Assembly (NCBI GenBank): GCA_016219645.1
Contig: JACRLR010000040.1
Span: forward strand, 62,001 to 126,000
DNA length: 64,000 bases
Reading direction: 5' to 3'
Origin: Nitrospirota bacterium
Lineage (GTDB): Bacteria > Nitrospirota > Nitrospiria > Nitrospirales > Nitrospiraceae
The position numbers and the translations under genes are program-made. This document shows positions 19,379-30,491 of this stretch, in pieces. The notes under the pieces were generated by a model. It was given only the letters and a program-made list of their open reading frames with translations, was not told the origin of the DNA and ran no database searches. How positions within the stretch are numbered: the first letter of the stretch is position 1; each line of letters opens with the position of its first letter.

Positions 19379-20749
19379 GTGAACATGAAGATCCACAACC
19401 TGATCATTCTGGGTCTCTCCTTCCTGCTCCTCATCGGAGAATGGGGTTGCGCACACCACGCCATCGCTCCATCTCCACTACCAGAATCCATGCAACAGCA
19501 GCTTGGCAAGATTGGGGTGGTGGTCAGATCGACGGGGGGGCAAAAGACTCTTAGTACTCCTGAAGCTGGACGACTGAGTAATATTAGGAGAGGTGCTGGT
19601 GTTGGCGCTGCGATGGAGGCAGGGGTCGGTGCTCAGGGCGGCGTGATTGCCCTTCCCGCATTCGCTGTCCTTGGTCTCCTAGGAGGGACTATCTATGGCG
19701 CGATGGCCTCAGAGCCTTGGGAAGAGCAGGATGCTAGCTTCCGAACCATTGTCACCGAACTGAATCTGAATCGAACACTCCCTGAGCGCGTCGCGGCTTT
19801 TTCTCGATTGCATGGCTACGAGATCGCGCACCTGAGCACAGGTACGCCGGAGCAGCCTCAGGAACCGTCTCGCTATGCCGCAGCCAGGAGAGACGGTATC
19901 GATACGGTGCTGGAGATTCAGGACCTGACGATCAGTCTGAATCCCGCTGAGTATCTGGTGAATCCGGCACGTAGGCTGATTCTCTCGGTACGCGCGCAAC
20001 TCATCCGAACGGCAGATGCGACAGTCCTAGATGATCGTATTGTGACAGACAAACTCGGACCGGCGCTGGGGCTCAACGAATGGACTGCGGACCATGCCGT
20101 ACGGTTTCGCCAGGAAGCGAAGCAGGCTTCAGACCGCCTAGCCGAGCAACTCGTCACGGAGTATTTCATGGTGTACCCATTTTACGAACGAGTGACTTCC
20201 GAGTTTTTCATGGCAGTACATCTGAAAGGACTTCGCCCGCTGTATCCTGGAGAGAGACCAGAATTTCCGGCCAGTCAAGTAATCAACGAGAAGGACATTT
20301 CCCGGCCCATTCCGAATGAATTTCGCATCATGGCGCAAAGGGCCGACGCACTCCAGCCGGTCCTGAGTTGGGAACCGTTCTCCGGCCCCCGCGTCACCTA
20401 TGAGCTGAAGGTTTGGCGGTCTGGAAGATTGGGCCCTGATGTTCTTGTCTACAGCCGAACCAACATAGAAAAAGCCTCCCACAAGCTAGAGATAACGCTT
20501 GAACCATCTTCGCTGTATTACTGGTCTGTGCGCGCGCATTTTGTAGAGCAGGGAAAAGATCGGATCACGGAATGGAGCAGACGCTCGGTGAAGCCCAGCC
20601 TTATGGCTAAAATCATGACTTCAGGAATAGCGGCTCTTATGCCAGATCCGGTAGACGAAGGCTTTTATGTGTTCATCACTCCGCCACCGCGTTCCCAAAA
20701 TCCTAAGCCGGCTGCTTCCCAATCACGATGGTTCCCCTGGGAAAACTAG
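19379..20749 (+). CDS. Large lipoprotein of unknown function
   Basis: A 456-residue protein with lipoprotein signal (LGLSFLLLIGEWGC). The region after it, QLGKIGVVVRSTGG, then a glycine-rich hydrophobic stretch (GAGVGAAMEAGVGAQGG, FAVLGLLGGTIYGAM), resembles the layout of the shorter lipoprotein at 21968. The C-terminal half (about residues 310-400) has beta-rich FNIII-like features such as PVLSWEPFSGPRVTYELKVW and SLYYWSVRAHF. The GTG at 19379 lies 9 bases after GGAG; the ATG at 19385 is also possible. Not recognised as a named family. Confidence 0.7.
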   Translation: MNMKIHNLIILGLSFLLLIGEWGCAHHAIAPSPLPESMQQQLGKIGVVVRSTGGQKTLSTPEAGRLSNIRRGAGVGAAMEAGVGAQGGVIALPAFAVLGLLGGTIYGAMASEPWEEQDASFRTIVTELNLNRTLPERVAAFSRLHGYEIAHLSTGTPEQPQEPSRYAAARRDGIDTVLEIQDLTISLNPAEYLVNPARRLILSVRAQLIRTADATVLDDRIVTDKLGPALGLNEWTADHAVRFRQEAKQASDRLAEQLVTEYFMVYPFYERVTSEFFMAVHLKGLRPLYPGERPEFPASQVINEKDISRPIPNEFRIMAQRADALQPVLSWEPFSGPRVTYELKVWRSGRLGPDVLVYSRTNIEKASHKLEITLEPSSLYYWSVRAHFVEQGKDRITEWSRRSVKPSLMAKIMTSGIAALMPDPVDEGFYVFITPPPRSQNPKPAASQSRWFPWEN

Positions 20750-21458
20750 CCGTTGTCATCACCAGATAGCGAGCAACAGGAGCAATCCACGAGATGAGGG
20801 GAGAAAACAGTTCCAGCAACCGTCCCTGTTATGGGCGCGAACAGCGTGTCACCTTCAACGGTGCGTGTCCTGTCGTTGTTTCATTCCTGTTGGAGTCTTC
20901 GTATGGATGGCACGGGTTATGCTGTCATCTGGTTAAAGGAACTGCGGAGCCGCGAGAAATGGATGCGAGGCGAGCACAACATCAGGCTGAAGCACTGCAT
21001 ACCAGACCTACGCACCGCCAGCGATAGAGCAGTTGACGTCGTTCCACGATACAGAAACCAGGAGGGTATTGCGGCCCCCCCTCGTTTCGAGGACAGGCCA
21101 CACACAGAGAAGAAATCACCATGAGACTCAATGGTGCATCGAGGGTGGATCGAATCGCATTCAGTACGTATTGGATTCGAGCCACCTCTTACCGCATGAA
21201 AGAGAACAACCGTTCCTGTTTTTTAGGTCCGTGAGCGAATATGCCTCACGCGGAGCAAACGTAGGGAGCAGAGGGAGCTAGTGCAACTAGTGCCCAAAGA
21301 ATTTCAGTGTGATGTTGCTGGCATCCCTAAGAGGTCATAGCAGCCCCAGGGGGTAGGCCCCATCAGTAGAATCATGCCCCGATGGAGAGCCAGCAGTTCT
21401 CGGTGAAGAACAATGATCAGGGAATTCGAGACTGAATATTTCAATACAGGAGGTAGCT
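20750..21458. other. 700-base stretch without a supported gene
   Basis: Several overlapping short ORFs exist on both strands (for example 20831-21124), but none has a good ribosome binding site or a recognisable product. The composition is mixed and includes GGGCGCGAACAGCGTG and a CTAGTGC direct repeat near 21279. It may be the remains of degraded genes. An AGGAGG at about 21449 belongs to the next gene. Confidence 0.4.
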
Positions 21459-21821
21459 ATGAATCGATCACTATGGGTTATCGCCGCCTTGGCCATTTTT
21501 ATAGGTGGGTGCAGTTCATCTGGCACGCTAGGTATCGTGACAAAGAGCACTGCTGACCCCGCTTCCTTGCTAAGAACGGGGCGGGCTTTCACAGAGCTTG
21601 GCCCGGTTAAAGCAGAAGTTTGCCGTCACTTTGTTCTTGCGATCATTCCCTGGGGAAAATCTGATTTTGGTGCTGCAGTCGATAAGGCCTTGGTAGAAAG
21701 AGGTGGGGATGCGCTCCTAAATGTGACCGTGGAAACTAGCCTCTACGGCTTTATTCCCGTTTACAATGTCTACTCATTCACCTGTACCACCGTACAAGGG
21801 ATCGCGGTCAAGTTTGAGTGA
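21459..21821 (+). CDS. Small TRL-like lipoprotein
   Basis: A 120-residue lipoprotein (signal WVIAALAIFIGGC). The body contains GRAFTELGPVKAEVCRH, WGKSDFGAAVDKALVERGGDALLNVTVETS, and the end NVYSFTCTTVQGIAVKF. This layout, with a helix that ends in GGDALLNV followed by two strands, is typical of the small TRL/YceB-like periplasmic lipoproteins. Two cysteines (CRH and FTC) could form a disulfide. The start follows AGGAGG. Function unknown. Confidence 0.7.
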   Translation: MNRSLWVIAALAIFIGGCSSSGTLGIVTKSTADPASLLRTGRAFTELGPVKAEVCRHFVLAIIPWGKSDFGAAVDKALVERGGDALLNVTVETSLYGFIPVYNVYSFTCTTVQGIAVKFE

Positions 21822-21967
21822 TCGCAAAAGACTCGAACCAAACGTGGGAAGCCCAGGAAATGTCCATGAACTGTGCTCGAAGAAGCGAAGGAACGGGGTT
21901 AGGCATGAGTATTGACTTAATAGCACTAATTTGATGAACACAACTTGGCAACCATGAGACTTGAATC

Positions 21968-22666
21968 ATGTATGGACGTGCTCCGCTTTTCTCCAGATAC
22001 CTGAAGCGTGTAGCCTGTGTCGCAATTGCGGCGACCCTCGTATCATGCGCCTCAACGACCGGGACAAAAACCACTCTTACATCCGCTGACCTTTCGAAGA
22101 TCACAAAAGCGGGTATCCTCGTCGAATCCAAACACCCCTTCTCGGTTCGTGTTGCCCGAGAGCAGATGACAAATACGGGGGCTGTTCTCTTTGGCTTGAT
22201 TGGCGCTGCTGTGGAGGCGGGATATAAGTTTTCAAAAGACTCCGGTTATGAGGAAGAGATTGGTCGCGTTCTTGGCGACTTCGATTCGGTGAAAGACAGC
22301 GCTGCAGCGTTTCGCGAAAAGTTTCTAGCAGGAAAAGTATTCCCTATTGTCGAGGTCGTTCAGACGGATAATGCCCGTGGCCTGAGAGAGCAGGGATTCG
22401 ACGCCGTGTTCAAAGAAACGATCGAAGAATGGGGATTACGACTGTGCTCGGGAGAGGAAAACGTGCAAGTGGGGTTTGACATACATGCGCAGCTTGTCTC
22501 GCTCCAGAATGATAGGACAATTTGGGAACGTGATGAGTTGTTTGTCGAAGGCCCCTGTCGTCCCTTGAGCGATTTTCGGAGCGATCGAGAATTGCTTCGT
22601 TCGAGCCTTAAGCGAGCAACCGAGACCTTAGCGGGAAGAATCGCGAACGAAATTTCTTTTCCATAA
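21968..22666 (+). CDS. Lipoprotein of unknown function
   Basis: A 232-residue protein with an N-terminal basic patch and lipobox LVSC (cysteine near residue 28). Then come ITKAGILVESKHPFSVRV, a hydrophobic glycine-containing segment (TGAVLFGLIGAAVEAGYKF), a helical stretch (DSVKDSAAAFREKF) and a beta-rich domain. The order of elements is like the N-terminal half of the lipoprotein at 19379. The next gene follows 17 bases after the stop, with a good ribosome binding site, so they are probably co-transcribed. Not recognised as a named family. Confidence 0.7.
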   Translation: MYGRAPLFSRYLKRVACVAIAATLVSCASTTGTKTTLTSADLSKITKAGILVESKHPFSVRVAREQMTNTGAVLFGLIGAAVEAGYKFSKDSGYEEEIGRVLGDFDSVKDSAAAFREKFLAGKVFPIVEVVQTDNARGLREQGFDAVFKETIEEWGLRLCSGEENVQVGFDIHAQLVSLQNDRTIWERDELFVEGPCRPLSDFRSDRELLRSSLKRATETLAGRIANEISFP

Positions 22667-22683
22667 ATACAGAGGAGGATCTC

Positions 22684-23322
22684 ATGAATACACACTGGCA
22701 TAAGCTTGTAATCCTAGCACTTTTCTTGTCTATCGCTGTGTCTGGATGCGCGCTAACGGACGCTCACGTGAATCCTGGGTTTACGCCGGAGTCTGGGAAG
22801 AGAAGTCCATTAAGTACAATACACTCGCTCGCAATCTCAATTCAGGTCGAGGATCACCGGAACCCAGGCGAGCAGGACAGAGTCGGTGATAAGAAAAATG
22901 GCTTCGGTACAGTGACAGCAAAAGTGCTATCGGACAAGGTACCGACAACCATTCTTTACGACGCTCTGAAGGCTGAGTTTGAGAACAATGCGCACAAGAT
23001 TGTTCAGACAGAAGATCGTAAGGCTGATGCACTGATCAAGATCGGGCTTAAGAGGTATTGGAGTGACCTCGCCATCCACTTCTTCGATATTGAGATGACA
23101 GGGAAGTTGGATGCCGATATTACGATCTTGAACGGGATCGATCAAAACCAGTTGGCGTCCAAGCCGCTCAACAGTACATTTCGTGAGAGTCGACAGATTG
23201 CTCTCGAGGGGGCCTTCGAAAGCGTCTTAAATGGAGCTCTTTTCGAGTTTATACGAAGCTTTTCTCGTGATCCCAACGTCTTGGATGCCCTAAGAACAGT
23301 CGCTTTCCAGAAAGAAAAATGA
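22684..23322 (+). CDS. YajG-like lipoprotein
   Basis: A 212-residue lipoprotein (signal LFLSIAVSGC). The domain shows IHSLAISIQVEDHR, then VPTTILYDALKAEFENNAHK, ALIKIGLKRYWSD, and helices ending with FEFIRSFSRDPNVLDAL. This order is like YajG and other periplasmic lipoproteins that carry an asymmetric beta-alpha fold. Start ATG follows AGAGGAGGATCTC. It is the last of the lipoprotein series before the long repeat protein. The family link is moderate and no function is known. Confidence 0.7.
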   Translation: MNTHWHKLVILALFLSIAVSGCALTDAHVNPGFTPESGKRSPLSTIHSLAISIQVEDHRNPGEQDRVGDKKNGFGTVTAKVLSDKVPTTILYDALKAEFENNAHKIVQTEDRKADALIKIGLKRYWSDLAIHFFDIEMTGKLDADITILNGIDQNQLASKPLNSTFRESRQIALEGAFESVLNGALFEFIRSFSRDPNVLDALRTVAFQKEK

Positions 23323-23894
23323 TGACAGTTGCCAGTTCGTTGCCCTCCAAGGTTCAATAGCTTGGGGAGAAAAACGGGGAGAAAAGAGCCGGCCCGTGAT
23401 GCGCCGCTCACCCGCTCCTCTTCCGCCACTCCCTCGGCGGCACCGGAGTTGCTGCCGGAAGTCTATGCCGCCGGGCAGTATGTGGATGAAGTTCGCACAC
23501 ATCGCGTCGCCCACTAAGGGGTCGCCGCCTGATTCCATTTACACACCTATTGACCAGCCCTCAAAAAACTGACTTAAATCCTCCCAACGGTCTCGCATTT
23601 CTCAGTCAACTATGCACCGGCTCTCTATACGTGAAGATACAAGCGTTCAGATGAAATCTCCTCTGTGCGATCTTTCAGTCAAGCACCCCGTGAACAAGTC
23701 TGCTCTACCATGAACCGCCGTTCATAGTTTCTCATCCTTCCGTGTGCCGCTGATCTGCGTCGAAAATATGGCGCGCATTCCAGACTGTCATATTTCCTCG
23801 AAAATCTCATATTGACGTCGTCGCATGCCCGTCCCGCACCTGCGGCACTCTCTTTGCTGATCATCAGAGCATCACTAGTCAGGAGGTGGCTTAT
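23323..23894. other. Gene-free stretch upstream of the FPLY repeat protein
   Basis: No supported gene. An ORF at 23329-23517 reads through a proline/serine-rich stretch (SSSATPSAAPELLPEVYAAG) without a good ribosome binding site; it may be a gene remnant. The operator-like inverted repeat at 23710-23728 lies here. An AT-rich segment (GTCATATTTCCTCGAAAATC) at about 23788-23807 may hold a promoter. AGGAGG at 23881 serves the next gene. Confidence 0.45.
23710..23728. promoter_or_regulatory. Candidate operator, ATGAAcCGCcGTTCATAGT
   Basis: Second copy of the inverted repeat seen at 18602-18620, differing at two of 19 bases, both in the spacer. It lies 167 bases before the start of the repeat-protein gene. 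The two sites suggest that the lipoprotein series and this gene answer to one regulator. Confidence 0.5.
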
Positions 23895-26800
23895 ATGAAT
23901 ACATGTCTTACTCAGCGGATCGCGCTATTGGCTGCTTCATTGTTGTTCTCAGCACAAACAGCCATCGCCACCATTGTCGACCAGTCGGAGCCGCCCAGTG
24001 ACATTCAACGTCATTGCATCGGACTCTTGTGGTGTACAGAACGGTCTGTAGAGGGAACGTCGGTCGATGGCCTGTTATGGCTCTATTCGGCTGAGGAGCG
24101 AGGCAGTTACTCCCGACTGGCTGTACGGCCGCTATATTCCATGGAAGAAGATCCGACGCGCAATCTGCTGCGACGGAGTATTCTCTGGCCATTGGGGACC
24201 TATGAACGTCGAGGAGACCAGGCCTGGGCCCATGTCTTTCCTCTCTATTGGCATTCTGAAGAGCCAGGCCAGGAATGGAGCTTCACTGTTCCGTTCTATC
24301 TGAAATCGGTCCAGGGAGACAGCGCATGGCATCACCTCTTTCCCTTGTTCAGTCGCCATGTCATCGGCGACTACTACACAAGCAACTTTGTGCTTGGTCC
24401 ATTCTTGATCACGACAAGCGACAGCCGCACTGACTTAACTCAATGGGATCTGATCTTCCCCTTGTTCCACTATCGGCGGGATCTCAATTCGTCAAACAGC
24501 TGGCTGTTCCCGCTCTATTGGTCAGGCGAGGACCCGTCGAAGGGTGAAGCCTATCGCTATATCCTGCCGCTCTACGGCTCTTCTGATGATCCATCCCAAC
24601 ACTACCATTTCCTTTTCCCGTTCTATGGCTATGCCGACAACACCTCGGCCCAGGTCAAGCGGCTCGCCATACTCGGCTTGCCTCCAGCGAAAGGATTTTC
24701 CACAATACCTTCCGTAGCGCTCTTCGAACACGTGACGACGGCCGACGAGACGAGTCATCGGATATTTCCGCTTTACAGCTACGTCTCAGGTACGGATGGC
24801 AGCAGCACTTTCGACGCGCTCCTCCTCTACCGTCATCAGGCTGCGTCATTCAACACCATCGATCGTTTCTTTCCCTTGTATCGATACGAAGGCAATGCTG
24901 ATAGCCAATCCCATGAATTTAATTTGTTGGGTTATCGCGAAGCCTCATGGTTTCACTATCAGGACGACCCGGACGGGACTCAACACCGGCTCCTAGGCAC
25001 ATACAACTACGACGACAGCCGGGATGGATCTGTTCAGCTCTCCGCGCTCGGCTATCGACGCTTATCCCTCTATCTCCACCGGAGCCAGGACGATCTGACC
25101 GAAGATCGGCTCGTTCCCTTGTACGACTACTTCCGGGACGGGAACAACGGAACTCTCTCTCTCATCGGCATGTCCGACATCGCTTTGTATCGGCAGGAAT
25201 CGAGCCCGTCTCTGTTCCAACATCGCCTGTTTCCGCTTTATCGATACCGGCACGATCTCGTGAAGGACGAGACCCAGTTTGACGCCCTGCTCCTGTATCG
25301 CCATCTCACGACTCCGCTCCAAGTGGCCGACCGGCTGCTCCCCTTCTGGGACTACACTGGAACAACTGCCAAGACAGACTGGCAGTTCAGTTTCCTGGGA
25401 ACAGGGGCCGTGGCGCTGTATCGCCACGACGGCAACGACGCGCGCACGTTGGATCACCTGTTCCCTCTCTATGGTTATCGCAGGGAGCAAGACGGCGGAA
25501 CTCGACTCAGCTTGTTGGGGCTACCGCCATTCGGCCCGCTGGCTGGCTGGTCTCTCTATGAACATAACGACTCTTCATCCCAAGTGAGCGACCGCTTCTT
25601 CCCTCTCTACCATTACCGAAAGGACACAATACAGCAGGCATCAGCATTCGACATACTGGGAATAGGGTCCGCTTCCCTCATTCACCACGAGACAACTCCG
25701 ACTAGCGTAACGAATCGACTCTTCCCGCTTTATCGATATGCTTACGATGAACAGGCCGAGCAGACCACGATCAATCTACTTGGAATCGAACCGGTAAGCC
25801 TCTTCCGATCTCAAAGCGGACATTCACAGAGCGCTAACCATATCTTCCCACTCTACGATTACGAACGAACAGGCGAGACTCGCCGCCTTTCGGCCATCGG
25901 ACTCCCTAGGATCGGCGGCATACCTGCCTTGTCTATCTATGCACACGAGACGACCCCAAACGCGGTGCATGATCGGCTGTTTCCGCTCTACAGCTACCGG
26001 GCCGACGACGTAACCGACAGCACCTCATTTTCCGCACTCTGGATGTTCTGGCGCACAACGTCACCGACCATAAGCCAAACCAGTCTCTTTCCCATCGCGA
26101 GCATGGCGACGGATAAGACCACGGGTGAAACTACGTGGTCGTTTATCGGCCTCGAACCGGCTATTCCGATAAGTTGGGTTCGCCATACCTGGACATCCGA
26201 GGGCAGTAGTGGGTTCTTCTTCCCGCTCTATGACTACCGGAGCAATGAAAGCCAATCAGTCCTGTCGATCGGAGGAGTCTCGCAACTGGCTATCTATCGT
26301 CAAGAAGAGACTCCTAGTTACCGCAGCCATCGACTCTTTCCCATCTATAGCTACCAACATGACCTCGCCGAAGACGTGGCACAAACGAGAATCCTACTGG
26401 TTTACGAACATGAGCAGTCCCCCATTCACTCCGCTGATCGCCTGTTCCCGCTGTGGCAATACGAGCGCCGGGATGACCAGAGCGAGACGAGGCTGACTGC
26501 GTTAGGTTTCGGGAGCTTGTCCCTCTATGAACATCACACTACACCAACCGGCACCACCGACCGGTTCTTCCCGCTCTACGAATACGTGTCGAACCGCGAC
26601 AGGGACGAAACGGAATTTTCGCTACTCTGGCCGCTCGCGGATTACAAGAGCCGGCAGGGCACGGTCACGTCTGCAAGCCTGTTGTGGTGGTTGGCGTCCT
26701 ACGAGCACCCCGATGCCGACCATTCCAGCTTTCACCTGTTCGGCGGGTCTAAAATGGCCATGGTTCGCCGCACGAGAACGCCGCAGGAGTCAGTCTTTGA

Positions 26801-26939
26801 GCTCAACCCGGTAATTCCTCTGTACCGGTACCGGCACGCAACAGACGGGAACTCGTCATGGGACATCTTTGGCGGGGTCTTGGGAATGGACACAACACCG
26901 AAAGGAACAAGAGTGAAGGTCCTCTTCGTCTCACTCTGA
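23895..26939 (+). CDS. Giant exported FPLY-repeat protein
   Basis: A 1014-residue protein with a signal peptide (RIALLAASLLFSAQTAIA). Nearly all the rest is about 23-24 imperfect repeats with a period near 40-45 residues. Each repeat has a strand of the type DRLFPLYRYRHD, a short acidic loop, and a second strand like LLGxxSLYRHE followed by a TTPxx turn. Clear examples include HRIFPLYSY, DRFFPLYRY, DHLFPLYGY, DRFFPLYHY, NRLFPLYRY, NHIFPLYDY and DRLFPLYSY. The alternating aromatic/basic strands suggest a beta-hairpin repeat, perhaps a beta-barrel or solenoid at the cell surface. I do not recognise the family. The ATG at 23895 is 8 bases after AGGAGG; an in-frame GTG at 23886 overlaps the ribosome binding site. 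Confidence 0.85.
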   Translation: MNTCLTQRIALLAASLLFSAQTAIATIVDQSEPPSDIQRHCIGLLWCTERSVEGTSVDGLLWLYSAEERGSYSRLAVRPLYSMEEDPTRNLLRRSILWPLGTYERRGDQAWAHVFPLYWHSEEPGQEWSFTVPFYLKSVQGDSAWHHLFPLFSRHVIGDYYTSNFVLGPFLITTSDSRTDLTQWDLIFPLFHYRRDLNSSNSWLFPLYWSGEDPSKGEAYRYILPLYGSSDDPSQHYHFLFPFYGYADNTSAQVKRLAILGLPPAKGFSTIPSVALFEHVTTADETSHRIFPLYSYVSGTDGSSTFDALLLYRHQAASFNTIDRFFPLYRYEGNADSQSHEFNLLGYREASWFHYQDDPDGTQHRLLGTYNYDDSRDGSVQLSALGYRRLSLYLHRSQDDLTEDRLVPLYDYFRDGNNGTLSLIGMSDIALYRQESSPSLFQHRLFPLYRYRHDLVKDETQFDALLLYRHLTTPLQVADRLLPFWDYTGTTAKTDWQFSFLGTGAVALYRHDGNDARTLDHLFPLYGYRREQDGGTRLSLLGLPPFGPLAGWSLYEHNDSSSQVSDRFFPLYHYRKDTIQQASAFDILGIGSASLIHHETTPTSVTNRLFPLYRYAYDEQAEQTTINLLGIEPVSLFRSQSGHSQSANHIFPLYDYERTGETRRLSAIGLPRIGGIPALSIYAHETTPNAVHDRLFPLYSYRADDVTDSTSFSALWMFWRTTSPTISQTSLFPIASMATDKTTGETTWSFIGLEPAIPISWVRHTWTSEGSSGFFFPLYDYRSNESQSVLSIGGVSQLAIYRQEETPSYRSHRLFPIYSYQHDLAEDVAQTRILLVYEHEQSPIHSADRLFPLWQYERRDDQSETRLTALGFGSLSLYEHHTTPTGTTDRFFPLYEYVSNRDRDETEFSLLWPLADYKSRQGTVTSASLLWWLASYEHPDADHSSFHLFGGSKMAMVRRTRTPQESVFELNPVIPLYRYRHATDGNSSWDIFGGVLGMDTTPKGTRVKVLFVSL

Positions 26940-27032
26940 CCATTCTTCATTGATTGTTTCTTGTTCAGTGTGGCAAGAGGAAGTATTTGCCTGGCATCTC
27001 AAACACTGGCACACTGCACCCTCATCACCTCT

Positions 27033-30000
27033 ATGCAGGGGGACCCTATTCAGCAGGAGACATCCGTCAGCACCGCCTCGTCACCCCACCCGCTCCGCGG
27101 ACTCTTGATCGCCCAGTTCTTCGGCGCGTTCAACGACAACGCCTGGAAGCTCATGGTGGCCTTGCTGGCCATCCGGCAAGCAACCGCGCACATGGCGCCG
27201 GGCCCTGAGCTGGAAGCGGTAACCCAGGCGCAAACCACTCTTGCCTTCGTCGTCTTTACCTTGCCGCTAGTCTTACTGTCGTTGATCGGCGGCACCTTGG
27301 CCGATCGATTGAGCAAACGCACAGTCATCATCTCGATGAAAATCCTCGAGGTAGTCCTCATGGGCGCCGGTACGGTTGCGCTTTGGCTGAATACCGCCGG
27401 CGGCATGCTGCCGTTGATCGTCTTATGCGGGATGGGTGTGCACAGCGCGCTGTTCAGTCCGTCGAAGTACGGCATTCTCCCCGAGTTGATCCCGCATGAA
27501 CGTCTGGCCGCCGCGAATGGCCTGCTGGAAGTGTGGACATTCGCCGCTATTCTGACCGGCACAGCAGCCGGAGGATTTCTCTTGCAGAGCGCCGGAGACC
27601 AGACCTGGATAGCACCCCTCGCCTTGGCCGTCCTGTCGATAGCAGGCCTGGTTGCAGCCTTTGGCGTCCCCCACGTCTCGCCCGCCCGTACATCCGGCGG
27701 TGTCGGTTCGACGGTCCGCGGCGCCTGGTCCGCCATTCGCTCAGAGCCTCTGCTCCGATTTGCCATCGCAGGAGGAATCTTCTTCTGGATGATCGCAAGC
27801 CTCTTTGCCCAGAACGTGCTGGTCTATGCCAAAGCCGTCCTGCAGCTCTCGGATGCGATGTCGGGGCTCCCGCTCACATTGTTGTCCGTCGGCATCGGCG
27901 TGGGGGCCATGCTGGTCGGTCGGCTGTCTCAAAACAGAATCGAGTACGGACTGATTCCATTGGGGGCCGTCGGTGTGTTCATCGCCCTGTCCTTGATCAG
28001 CGCGATAACACCACCATTGATCGGAACGTTTCTGTTGATGGGACTTCTCGGCGTCTCCAGCGCCTTCATCTTCGTGCCGCTGAATGCCATTCTTCAATGG
28101 CGATCCCCGCCCGATCGGTGCGGCGCCGTCATCTCGTTCTTCAATACCTGTGTCTTCATCGGAATTCTCTTGGGCTCGCTTGCCGGAGGCTCGCTCGCCA
28201 ATATCGGTCTCTCGACGAGCAGCATTTTTCTCGCCACTGCGGGAATCACCATCGGAGGCACCCTGTGGGCCCTCTGGATCTTGCCCGATGCGTTCCTCCG
28301 TCTGCTGCTCGTCATCTTGACGAACACGCTCTATCGCATCCGCATTGTCGGCCAGCAGCACGTTCCCCAGTCCGGGGGAGCACTGCTCGTCCCAAACCAT
28401 ATGTCGTTCGTCGATGGCTTCTTACTTATGGCCAGCGTCGATCGGCCCATTCGGTTCGTGGTGGATGCCGCTTATGCGACACACCCCCTGTTCAAATGGG
28501 TGATGACCATCATGAAAGTCATCCCGATTACTTCCGCAGGCGACACCCGCATGATCCTCCGGGCGCTACGCAGCGCAGGGCAGGCTCTCGATGACGGTGA
28601 GATCGTCTGCATCTTCCCCGAAGGACAGATCACCCGTACCGGCACGTTGTTGCCGTTCCGTCGTGGCTTCGAACGGATTGTAAAGGGGCGGCAGGTACCG
28701 ATCATCCCCGTGCACTTGGATCGTCTGTGGGGCAGCATCTTCAGTTTCGAGGGCGGGCGTTTTTTTACGAAATGGCCCGATCGCATTCCCTATCCATTGA
28801 CGGTTTCCTTCGGCGCGCCGCTGCCAGCGGATACGCCGGCACACAAGCTCCGCGACGCGGTCTGCGCACTCGGAGAGGCGGCCTGGCTCCTTCGAAAATC
28901 CCATCGCCGCCCCCTGCACCGGGAGTTCATCCATGCCATGAGGCGGCATCCCTTCCACTTCGCGATGGCCGACCAGAACCGCCCCCATGTGTCGTCGCTC
29001 CAAGCCCTTGTTGGTTCCGTCGTACTTGCAAGAGTGCTTCGGCCTCATTGGGAAAACCAGCGTCATGTCGGCATCCTGCTTCCGCCGACCGTCGCCGGCG
29101 CATTAGTCAACGTGGCTGCGCCTCTCTGCGGAAAAGCCAGCGTGAATCTCAACTACACAGTCGGTAAGTCCGGCCTCGAAGCAGCCGTGCAGATAGCCGG
29201 CCTTCGCACGATCGTCACCAGCCGCCTCTTTGTCGAAAAAGCCAAGTTAGAGTTGCCGGAAGGACCGTCGATTATTTGGCTGGAGGACATTGCCCGTACC
29301 ATCGGCACAGGACAGAAACTCCTCGCAAGCCTCTTCGCCCTCTGCGCCCCTGCGCGACTGATCGAACTGGCGTGTGGACAGGACACCCCACTGACAATGG
29401 ACGACCTGGCCACCATTATCTTCAGCAGCGGCAGTACGGGTGAACCAAAGGGCGTGATGCTCTCTCACTTCAACATCGACGCCAATGCGCAGGGGGCCAA
29501 CCAGACCCTCCATCTCTACAGAAACGAGCGAGTGCTTGGTATCCTTCCATTTTTCCACTCATTCGGTTATCTCGTCTTCTGGTTGGCCATGTACAAGAAC
29601 GTGGGCATGGTCTTTCATCCCTCTCCCCTCGACGTCGCCGCCATCGGAGAACTTGTCCGCCGCTACCGCGTCACGTTCCTCGTGACAACACCGACGTTTC
29701 TTCAACTCTATTTGCGGCGCTGTACCCCGGAACAATTCAGCTCGCTGCGGGTGGTCCTTACCGGCGCTGAGAAGCTGCAGCCGAGGCTCGCGCAGGCCTT
29801 TGAAGATCGGTTCGGCGTCGGACCGATTGAGGGTTATGGTGTCACAGAATGTGCTCCCGTCATCGCCGTTAATTGTCCGGACTTCCGTGCCGCCGGTTAC
29901 TTCCAGCCTGCCTCGCGGAGGGGGACTGTCGGTCAACCCCTGCCCGGTGTTTCTGTACAAATCGTCGACCCGGACAGTTTCACCCCATTGCCGCCCGACA

Positions 30001-30491
30001 CACCTGGGATGTTACTGGTCAGAGGTCCCAACGTGATGAAGGGATACCTGGGCCGTGAGGATCTGACGACCAACGTCATGCGCGACGGTTGGTATATGAC
30101 AGGCGATATCGCGAAGTTGGATGAAGACGGGTTCCTGACGATCACCGACCGGCTCTCGCGCTTCTCGAAGATCGGCGGTGAAATGGTCCCACACGGTCGC
30201 GTGGAAGAGGCATTGCATCAGGCTGCCGCTAGCGAGCTACAAGTCTTCGCCGTCACCGGCCTTCCGGACGAGAAGAAAGGCGAGCGCCTGGCGGTATTAC
30301 ATACGCTGGATGAAAACCGTATCCCTGACATCCTTGATCAACTCGCCGTTAATGGACTCCCCAACCTCTTCATTCCGTCCCGCGCCAACTTCGTCAAGGT
30401 CGAGGCCTTACCGGTACTGGGAACCGGCAAGATGGACCTGCGTGGCCTTAAACGAATTGCGATGGAGCGACTGCGTTCGCGTGAAGCGTGA
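27033..30491 (+). CDS. LplT-PlsC-Aas fusion: lysophospholipid transporter, acyltransferase and acyl-ACP synthetase
   Basis: A 1152-residue three-domain protein. Residues 20-430 are a twelve-span MFS transporter of the LplT type (LLIAQFFGAFNDNAWKLMV, GGTLADRLSKR). Residues about 440-640 are a PlsC acyltransferase with the HxxxxD motif NHMSFVDG and the FPEGQITRTG block. Residues 660-1150 are an AMP-forming acyl-ACP/CoA synthetase with IIFSSGSTGEPKGVMLSH, GYGVTECAPV and YMTGDIAKLDEDGF. In enteric bacteria the transporter and the Aas enzyme are separate and take up and re-acylate lysophospholipids at the inner membrane; here they are one chain. The ATG at 27033 is preferred; the frame is open further up to 26961. 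Confidence 0.93.
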   Translation: MQGDPIQQETSVSTASSPHPLRGLLIAQFFGAFNDNAWKLMVALLAIRQATAHMAPGPELEAVTQAQTTLAFVVFTLPLVLLSLIGGTLADRLSKRTVIISMKILEVVLMGAGTVALWLNTAGGMLPLIVLCGMGVHSALFSPSKYGILPELIPHERLAAANGLLEVWTFAAILTGTAAGGFLLQSAGDQTWIAPLALAVLSIAGLVAAFGVPHVSPARTSGGVGSTVRGAWSAIRSEPLLRFAIAGGIFFWMIASLFAQNVLVYAKAVLQLSDAMSGLPLTLLSVGIGVGAMLVGRLSQNRIEYGLIPLGAVGVFIALSLISAITPPLIGTFLLMGLLGVSSAFIFVPLNAILQWRSPPDRCGAVISFFNTCVFIGILLGSLAGGSLANIGLSTSSIFLATAGITIGGTLWALWILPDAFLRLLLVILTNTLYRIRIVGQQHVPQSGGALLVPNHMSFVDGFLLMASVDRPIRFVVDAAYATHPLFKWVMTIMKVIPITSAGDTRMILRALRSAGQALDDGEIVCIFPEGQITRTGTLLPFRRGFERIVKGRQVPIIPVHLDRLWGSIFSFEGGRFFTKWPDRIPYPLTVSFGAPLPADTPAHKLRDAVCALGEAAWLLRKSHRRPLHREFIHAMRRHPFHFAMADQNRPHVSSLQALVGSVVLARVLRPHWENQRHVGILLPPTVAGALVNVAAPLCGKASVNLNYTVGKSGLEAAVQIAGLRTIVTSRLFVEKAKLELPEGPSIIWLEDIARTIGTGQKLLASLFALCAPARLIELACGQDTPLTMDDLATIIFSSGSTGEPKGVMLSHFNIDANAQGANQTLHLYRNERVLGILPFFHSFGYLVFWLAMYKNVGMVFHPSPLDVAAIGELVRRYRVTFLVTTPTFLQLYLRRCTPEQFSSLRVVLTGAEKLQPRLAQAFEDRFGVGPIEGYGVTECAPVIAVNCPDFRAAGYFQPASRRGTVGQPLPGVSVQIVDPDSFTPLPPDTPGMLLVRGPNVMKGYLGREDLTTNVMRDGWYMTGDIAKLDEDGFLTITDRLSRFSKIGGEMVPHGRVEEALHQAAASELQVFAVTGLPDEKKGERLAVLHTLDENRIPDILDQLAVNGLPNLFIPSRANFVKVEALPVLGTGKMDLRGLKRIAMERLRSREA

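What the first reader, a model, noticed from the sequence alone, without database searches (positions are those of the whole stretch)
23895..26939. Giant secreted protein of about two dozen FPLY-type hairpin repeats
The protein consists of a signal peptide and imperfect repeats in which DRLFPLYRYRHD-like strands alternate with LLGxxSLYRHE-like strands. This is a highly regular and aromatic-rich design that I do not recognise from any named repeat family. It could form a giant barrel or solenoid on the cell surface. The sequence supports the periodicity; the structure is inference.
Basis: partly seen in the sequence, partly recalled or inferred. Interest (0 to 1): 0.7.

Follow-up and report, generated by a model that had tools for sequence, protein, structure and literature searches.

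The report
Long one-greasy-edge beta ribbon protein
A soil bacterium that oxidises ammonia all the way to nitrate carries an exported protein of about 50 repeated beta-hairpins that is predicted to fold into one very long, open ribbon with one oily and one watery edge, a design seen only in short form elsewhere and of unknown job.

Summary
Window 23895-26939 (+) encodes a 1014-aa protein with a signal peptide, in an amoA-bearing (comammox) Nitrospira genome. It has about 50 beta-hairpins of 17-22 aa (about two dozen two-hairpin units of ~40 aa). It is under strong purifying selection (dN/dS 0.18) and belongs to a family in 17 of 396 sampled Nitrospirota genomes (~600 to ~1,300 aa, ~30 to ~60 hairpins). 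No Pfam or PDB relative was found; the distant named relative is NCBIfam LA_1737_Cterm, below cut-off for the window protein. AlphaFold of a complete 603-aa relative (24-row alignment) gives mean pLDDT 85: not a barrel or solenoid, but a free-standing antiparallel meander of 59 short strands, nearest in solved structures to CPAP G-box, MORN1 and engineered OspA. The 29 turns on one edge are hydrophobic and conserved (FPL, LGxxxSL); the 29 on the other are polar. So the chain makes a ribbon with one greasy rim. Best explanation: an exported envelope protein whose rim is buried along a membrane leaflet or against a second ribbon. Fold is predicted, rim chemistry is shown, location and partner are inferred. 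The gene is accessory: 8 of 32 congeners match, and it decays in two relatives.

The parts
23881..23886 (+). Shine-Dalgarno AGGAGG, 8 nt before ATG
   Evidence: sequence
23895..26939 (+). CDS of the ribbon protein, 1014 aa plus stop
   Evidence: orthologues; dN/dS 0.18
23895..23972 (+). signal peptide (residues 1-26, probable cleavage after AIA; no lipobox)
   Evidence: by inspection of the sequence; the relative L069 shows helix 2-19 then a low-confidence linker in the model; no dedicated predictor run
24003..24056 (+). first hairpin QRHCI-GLL-WCTERS with the only two cysteines of the mature protein (C41, C47), cross-strand neighbours next to the rim; probable disulfide N-cap
   Evidence: both Cys kept in 19 of the 21 members of A4 that reach this region; absent in L072/L073
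24003..26939 (+). repeat array: about 50 hairpins = about 100 strands of ~6 residues; A strand, hydrophobic turn (FPL, LLL, LGxxxSL), B strand (YxYRHD), polar turn
   Evidence: fold from relative L069
24003..24746 (+). conserved N-terminal hairpins (residues 37-284), shared by short and long family members
26550..26936 (+). conserved C-terminal hairpins (residues 886-1014) ending in a hydrophobic strand (KVLFVSL)

Best explanation
It is an exported envelope protein that folds as one long free-standing antiparallel beta-meander: about 50 hairpins, about 100 short strands, roughly 48 nm if flat (100 x 0.48 nm; inference). Because every second turn lies on the same edge, the conserved FPL/LGxxxSL turns build one continuous hydrophobic rim, while the other edge and most of the two faces are polar and charged. 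A rim of about 50 such turns is unlikely to stay in water, so it is buried. Most likely it lies in one leaflet of the outer membrane, so that the ribbon stands or leans on the membrane like a belt, and adding or losing hairpins sets its length. The N-terminal edge is capped by a disulfide-linked hairpin. Shown: repeat pattern, rim/polar alternation, conservation, export signal (by inspection). Predicted: meander fold. Inferred: membrane burial, location, disulfide, belt or scaffold role.
For: AlphaFold of the complete 603-aa relative L069: pLDDT 85.3, 59 strands mostly of 5-7 residues. Solved structures closest by VIA-align are free-standing meanders: CPAP G-box Z 12.6, Plasmodium MORN1 Z 11.8, engineered OspA Z 10.2; ApoB middle region aligns over 413 residues at Z 8.6 but rmsd 38. 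Turns on the two edges separate almost completely: mean octanol hydrophobicity +0.48 against -1.31, P = 4e-11, n = 29 each. The rim is the most conserved class (pairwise identity 0.62; polar turns 0.38; P = 9e-11) and hydrophobic across the family (0.62 against 0.15). The window protein parsed by itself gives +0.48 and -1.17 (parser trained on the family). Two conserved Cys in an otherwise Cys-free mature protein and a Sec-like signal fit an extracytoplasmic site. Purifying selection.
Against: pTM is only 0.43, so overall curvature and any closure are not fixed; no coordinates or PAE were available. The model is of a relative (~60% identical over the shared parts), and the window protein itself folded with only 9 rows gave pLDDT 36. 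AlphaFold can over-regularise repeats. Cross-strand covariation within hairpins was weakly in the expected register but not convincing. No direct evidence of membrane contact or of location. The neighbouring acyltransferase gene is conserved in most congeners without the ribbon gene, so it does not support a lipid role.
Confidence: 0.42

Rival explanations
1. The rim is buried by self-association: two or more ribbons pack rim to rim into a fibre or sheet on the cell surface or in the periplasm (structural or adhesive filament).
For: A hydrophobic edge suits a zipper; MORN1 proteins dimerise and CPAP G-box forms supramolecular assemblies (PMC7725318). Patchy, length-variable, decaying gene is typical of accessory surface proteins.
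Against: No multimer prediction could be run; nothing in the sequence marks a fixed interface.
Confidence: 0.25
2. It is a giant outer-membrane beta-barrel: A strand + FPL + B strand are one long transmembrane strand, giving about 50 strands.
For: Hydrophobic residues would form a central belt; VDAC and LptD appear among VIA matches (Z 6-8, rmsd 16-29); many members end in a hydrophobic/aromatic strand.
Against: The confident model breaks every strand at the FPL turn. Rim segments vary from 3 to 13 residues and are 28% Pro+Gly, unlike strand centres. In the window protein R/H at -3 and S/D/R at +3 leave only 5 hydrophobic residues. Hairpin counts vary about twofold among relatives. Barrels in one survey have 8-26 strands (PMC6340704).
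Confidence: 0.1
3. It is a protein-interaction scaffold like MORN or CPAP: the Tyr/Leu ladder beside the rim forms a groove that grips partner proteins.
For: Positions 1 and 3 from the rim on one face are L/Y rich; MORN grooves lined with aromatic side chains bind a partner, and the CPAP domain binds a proline-rich motif (PMC7725318, PMC3776556).
Against: No partner gene is conserved beside it.
Confidence: 0.13
4. It is a lipid-handling groove (bridge-like lipid transfer or lysophospholipid carrier) working with the LplT-Aas type acyltransferase next door.
For: Short-type genes lie directly upstream of acyl-[ACP]-phospholipid O-acyltransferase; long-type loci lie near a GDSL lipase (L095 by Pfam, L063 and L065 by likeness of the sequence).
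Against: The acyltransferase gene is present in 27 of 32 congeners, but the ribbon gene in only 8; no transmembrane anchor; strands show charged faces, not a greasy groove.
Confidence: 0.07

Closest known systems
NCBIfam NF047486 LA_1737_Cterm (LA_1737 family protein; a Leptospira locus name, from own knowledge)
   Same: Repeat segments of the family match it: window 9.7e-9, other members 1e-3 to 7e-18, one member above cut-off
   Different: Window protein is below cut-off and matches only 40 of 158 positions in its best stretch; the match is to repeats, not one C-terminal domain; no function or paper found
CPAP/SAS-4 G-box (TCP10) domain
   Same: Free-standing single-layer antiparallel meander; best structural match Z 12.6
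   Different: About 20 strands, intracellular, eukaryotic (PMC3776556); no sequence match
MORN repeat proteins (MORN1)
   Same: Elongated twisted sheet of hairpin repeats, Z up to 11.8
   Different: 23-aa repeat (PMC7725318); no MORN match in 24 members
Borrelia OspA single-layer sheet (engineered long forms)
   Same: Exported bacterial single-layer sheet, Z 9-10
   Different: OspA is a lipoprotein with globular ends and few sheet strands (own knowledge); here the sheet is the whole protein
Apolipoprotein B-100 beta-belt
   Same: Very long chain of antiparallel strands on lipid; aligns over 413 residues, Z 8.6
   Different: rmsd 38, so only local likeness; ApoB contacts lipid through a face (own knowledge), here hydrophobicity is on an edge

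Membership tests
NCBIfam LA_1737_Cterm (NF047486) | whole-protein score at or above the curated 60 bits | tested here: not met
   window 35.4 bits; relative L062 65.1 bits, so the wider family touches it
NCBIfam LA_1737_Cterm (NF047486) | one full-length match to the 158-position C-terminal domain | tested here: not met
   best stretch covers profile 15-55 at residues 308-347
MORN repeats | sequence profile match | tested here: not met
   no MORN hit at E<=1 in 24 members
MORN repeats | single-layer sheet of antiparallel hairpins | tested here: met
   predicted model of relative, Z 11.8 to 6t4d, rmsd 6.2 over 166; predicted, not solved
CPAP G-box / TCP10 | free-standing beta-meander without hydrophobic core | tested here: met
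   Z 12.6 to 4ld3, rmsd 7.8 over 150, in a predicted model; but this family has a hydrophobic edge
CPAP G-box / TCP10 | sequence homology | tested here: not met
   no Pfam or PDB sequence hit
Outer-membrane beta-barrel | long alternating strands with polar turns at both ends | tested here: not met
   6-residue strands, hydrophobic Pro/Gly-rich turns on one edge, in the predicted model
Outer-membrane beta-barrel | C-terminal aromatic beta-signal | tested here: inconclusive
   some members end in F, window ends in L, others carry polar tails
Teneurin/Rhs YD repeats | YD repeat profile and shell fold | tested here: inconclusive
   no RHS_repeat Pfam hit; teneurins appear in Foldseek with TM-score about 0.1
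Exported protein | Sec signal peptide in orthologues | tested here: met
   hydrophobic N-terminus in full-length members by inspection; no dedicated predictor was run

The most novel reading that the evidence does not exclude
A bacterial family of very long free-standing beta-meanders (about 60 to 120 strands) that lie edge-down along the outer membrane as one-rim-hydrophobic belts, whose length is set by hairpin copy number: a way of membrane attachment by a sheet edge not known to me from any described protein.
Probability: 0.28. Interest if true: 0.78.

Novelty: new variant of a known kind. Interest (0 to 1): 0.58.

Why it matters
The authors of the CPAP structure thought a free-standing meander without a core unique among natural proteins (PMC3776556). 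Here is a bacterial family predicted to make that fold several times longer, with an added all-along hydrophobic edge and graded copy number. That would be a natural series for asking how a single-layer sheet is stabilised, exported without aggregating, and attached to a membrane. It also marks an uncharacterised accessory envelope protein of comammox and other Nitrospira.

Tried and rejected
Window protein folded with 9 close rows: pLDDT 36, not used. Sequence search in PDB, plasmids, phages and viral contigs: nothing related. Literature on LA_1737: none found. Search of 198 Nitrospirota genomes with the LA_1737 family itself rang nowhere, controls included, so it shows nothing. Lipoprotein_15 (PF03640) matches weakly in 10 of 24 members (best 4e-6; E 2.6 and 8.1 against 24.4 bits in the window): set aside as a likely chance likeness of LYxYxxD strings, not tested further. 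Foldseek hits to WD40 proteins, teneurin and others have TM-scores of about 0.1 and are local hairpin likeness only. Covariation between the two strands of a hairpin: right direction, too weak. Lipid role from gene neighbours: weakened by the conserved acyltransferase without ribbon gene. Global barrel: argued against, not excluded.

Full report
What was claimed.

The frame at 23895-26939 (+) opens with ATG, has AGGAGG 8 nt upstream, and codes for 1014 residues. Self-similarity peaks at lags 17, 36, 19 and 41 (z 9.1, 6.7, 6.2, 6.2; no shuffle exceeded 4.4). The smallest unit is a hairpin of 17-22 residues. Parsing gives 48 hits, one of them the signal peptide, plus two or three divergent ones that it skipped, so about 50 hairpins.

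Host. The window's genome (3.65 Mb, 71 contigs) carries an AMO-family (amoA) gene (E 1.7e-92), and the closest named relatives are Nitrospira MAGs such as palsa_1310 and the Rifle clade B genome. It is therefore a comammox Nitrospira, probably clade B (the clade is inferred from relatives, not tested by a tree).

Family. In the genus 8 of 32 genomes have a match; in the family 23 of 175; in an even sample of the phylum 17 of 396, reaching other classes. A reciprocal search from a distant subgroup (alignment A3) finds the window protein again (E 4e-32). Complete members run from about 600 to about 1,300 residues (open frames up to 1,460) and about 30 to 60 hairpins; N- and C-terminal hairpins are conserved and copy number changes in the middle. 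The G013 orthologue lacks stretches of hairpins present in its sisters. The gene is under purifying selection (dN/dS 0.18).

Known families. No Pfam model reaches its cut-off in the window protein and no PDB sequence matches. The one named relative is NCBIfam LA_1737_Cterm: 35.4 bits for the window protein (cut-off 60), 19-46 bits for most members and 65.1 for one, L062. The matches are to short runs of repeats. This points to a wider repeat superfamily that probably includes Leptospira proteins (the name is a Leptospira locus tag, own knowledge); no described function could be found.

Fold. With 9 close rows the window protein could not be folded (pLDDT 36). The shortest complete relative, L069 (603 aa, 59% identical to the window protein over aligned parts), folded with 24 diverse rows gave mean pLDDT 85.3, pTM 0.43: 59 strands, mostly of 5-7 residues, joined by short turns. 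VIA-align ranks solved free-standing meanders first: CPAP G-box Z 12.6, MORN1 11.8, OspA 10.2; LptD and VDAC barrels come lower, Z 6-8 with rmsd 16-29. Z values near 8 are common for any model, so only the first group is taken as informative. The low pTM means that twist, coiling and closure of the whole ribbon are unknown.

The one-edge rim. Reading the turns off the model, the 29 turns after odd strands are hydrophobic (FPL, LPL, LWPL, LGPL, LLL, LGIGRFSL and so on) and the 29 after even strands are polar (GD, LVAD, SPT, TPT and so on): mean octanol-scale hydrophobicity +0.48 against -1.31, P = 4e-11, with almost no overlap. In a meander, odd and even turns lie on opposite edges, so one edge is greasy and the other is charged. 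The rim is also the most conserved part (0.62 mean pairwise identity; polar turns 0.38; P = 9e-11). On one face L and Y sit at positions 1 and 3 from the rim; the other face is charged. Rim segments are 3 to 13 residues long and 28% Pro+Gly, as expected of loops and not of transmembrane strand centres. The mature window protein has two cysteines, C41 and C47, facing each other across the first hairpin; they are kept in 19 of 21 members that reach this region, all but L072 and L073. A disulfide cap is inferred.

Mechanism. Shown: repeat pattern, rim chemistry, conservation, accessory distribution; export signal by inspection. Predicted: meander fold. Inferred: a rim of about 50 hydrophobic turns must be buried. 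A membrane leaflet is the simplest place for an exported protein without other anchors, giving a belt or fence along the outer membrane; burial against another ribbon is the main rival. Which leaflet, and what the ribbon is for, is not known.

Surroundings. In the short-type orthologues the gene lies between a sigma-54 regulator gene (with small lipoprotein-like genes in the window) and a fused MFS/acyltransferase/AMP-ligase gene named acyl-[ACP]-phospholipid O-acyltransferase by NCBIfam. That gene is found in 27 of 32 congeners, mostly with nothing of the ribbon gene in the 1.5 kb upstream, so adjacency looks like an insertion or loss site and not a pathway. Remnants of the ribbon gene stand at the same site in G016 (last ~94 codons) and G160 (with stops). 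Long-type genes sit elsewhere, some of them near DUF1614 and GDSL-lipase genes.

Verdict. The fold class is known in short form; the length and the continuous hydrophobic edge are the new part.

Noticed in passing
window 19379-23322: Four small genes upstream (19379-20749, 21459-21821, 21968-22666, 22684-23322) look like lipoproteins by their N-termini and match no Pfam or NCBIfam model.
   Followed up: partly
window 26961-30491: Fused MFS-acyltransferase-AMP ligase (PRK08633); orthologue alignments begin near residue 35-40, so the true start is probably ATG 27033, not the TTG at 26961.
   Followed up: partly
L022 632-1522: A rhombotarget lipoprotein (TIGR04179, 196 bits) and a small lipoprotein stand directly upstream of the decayed ribbon-gene remnant in G016.
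   Followed up: no
L062 5772-10099 and L063: G273 has two short-type copies in tandem (the second shortened, 345 codons) plus a long-type copy elsewhere with masked stretches.
   Followed up: no
L135 (G014): The acyltransferase match in G014 holds one TAA in frame, and its ribbon gene lies on another contig.
   Followed up: no
L074 4076-7966: A 1297-aa relative from another class stands next to a DUF4153 membrane protein.
   Followed up: no
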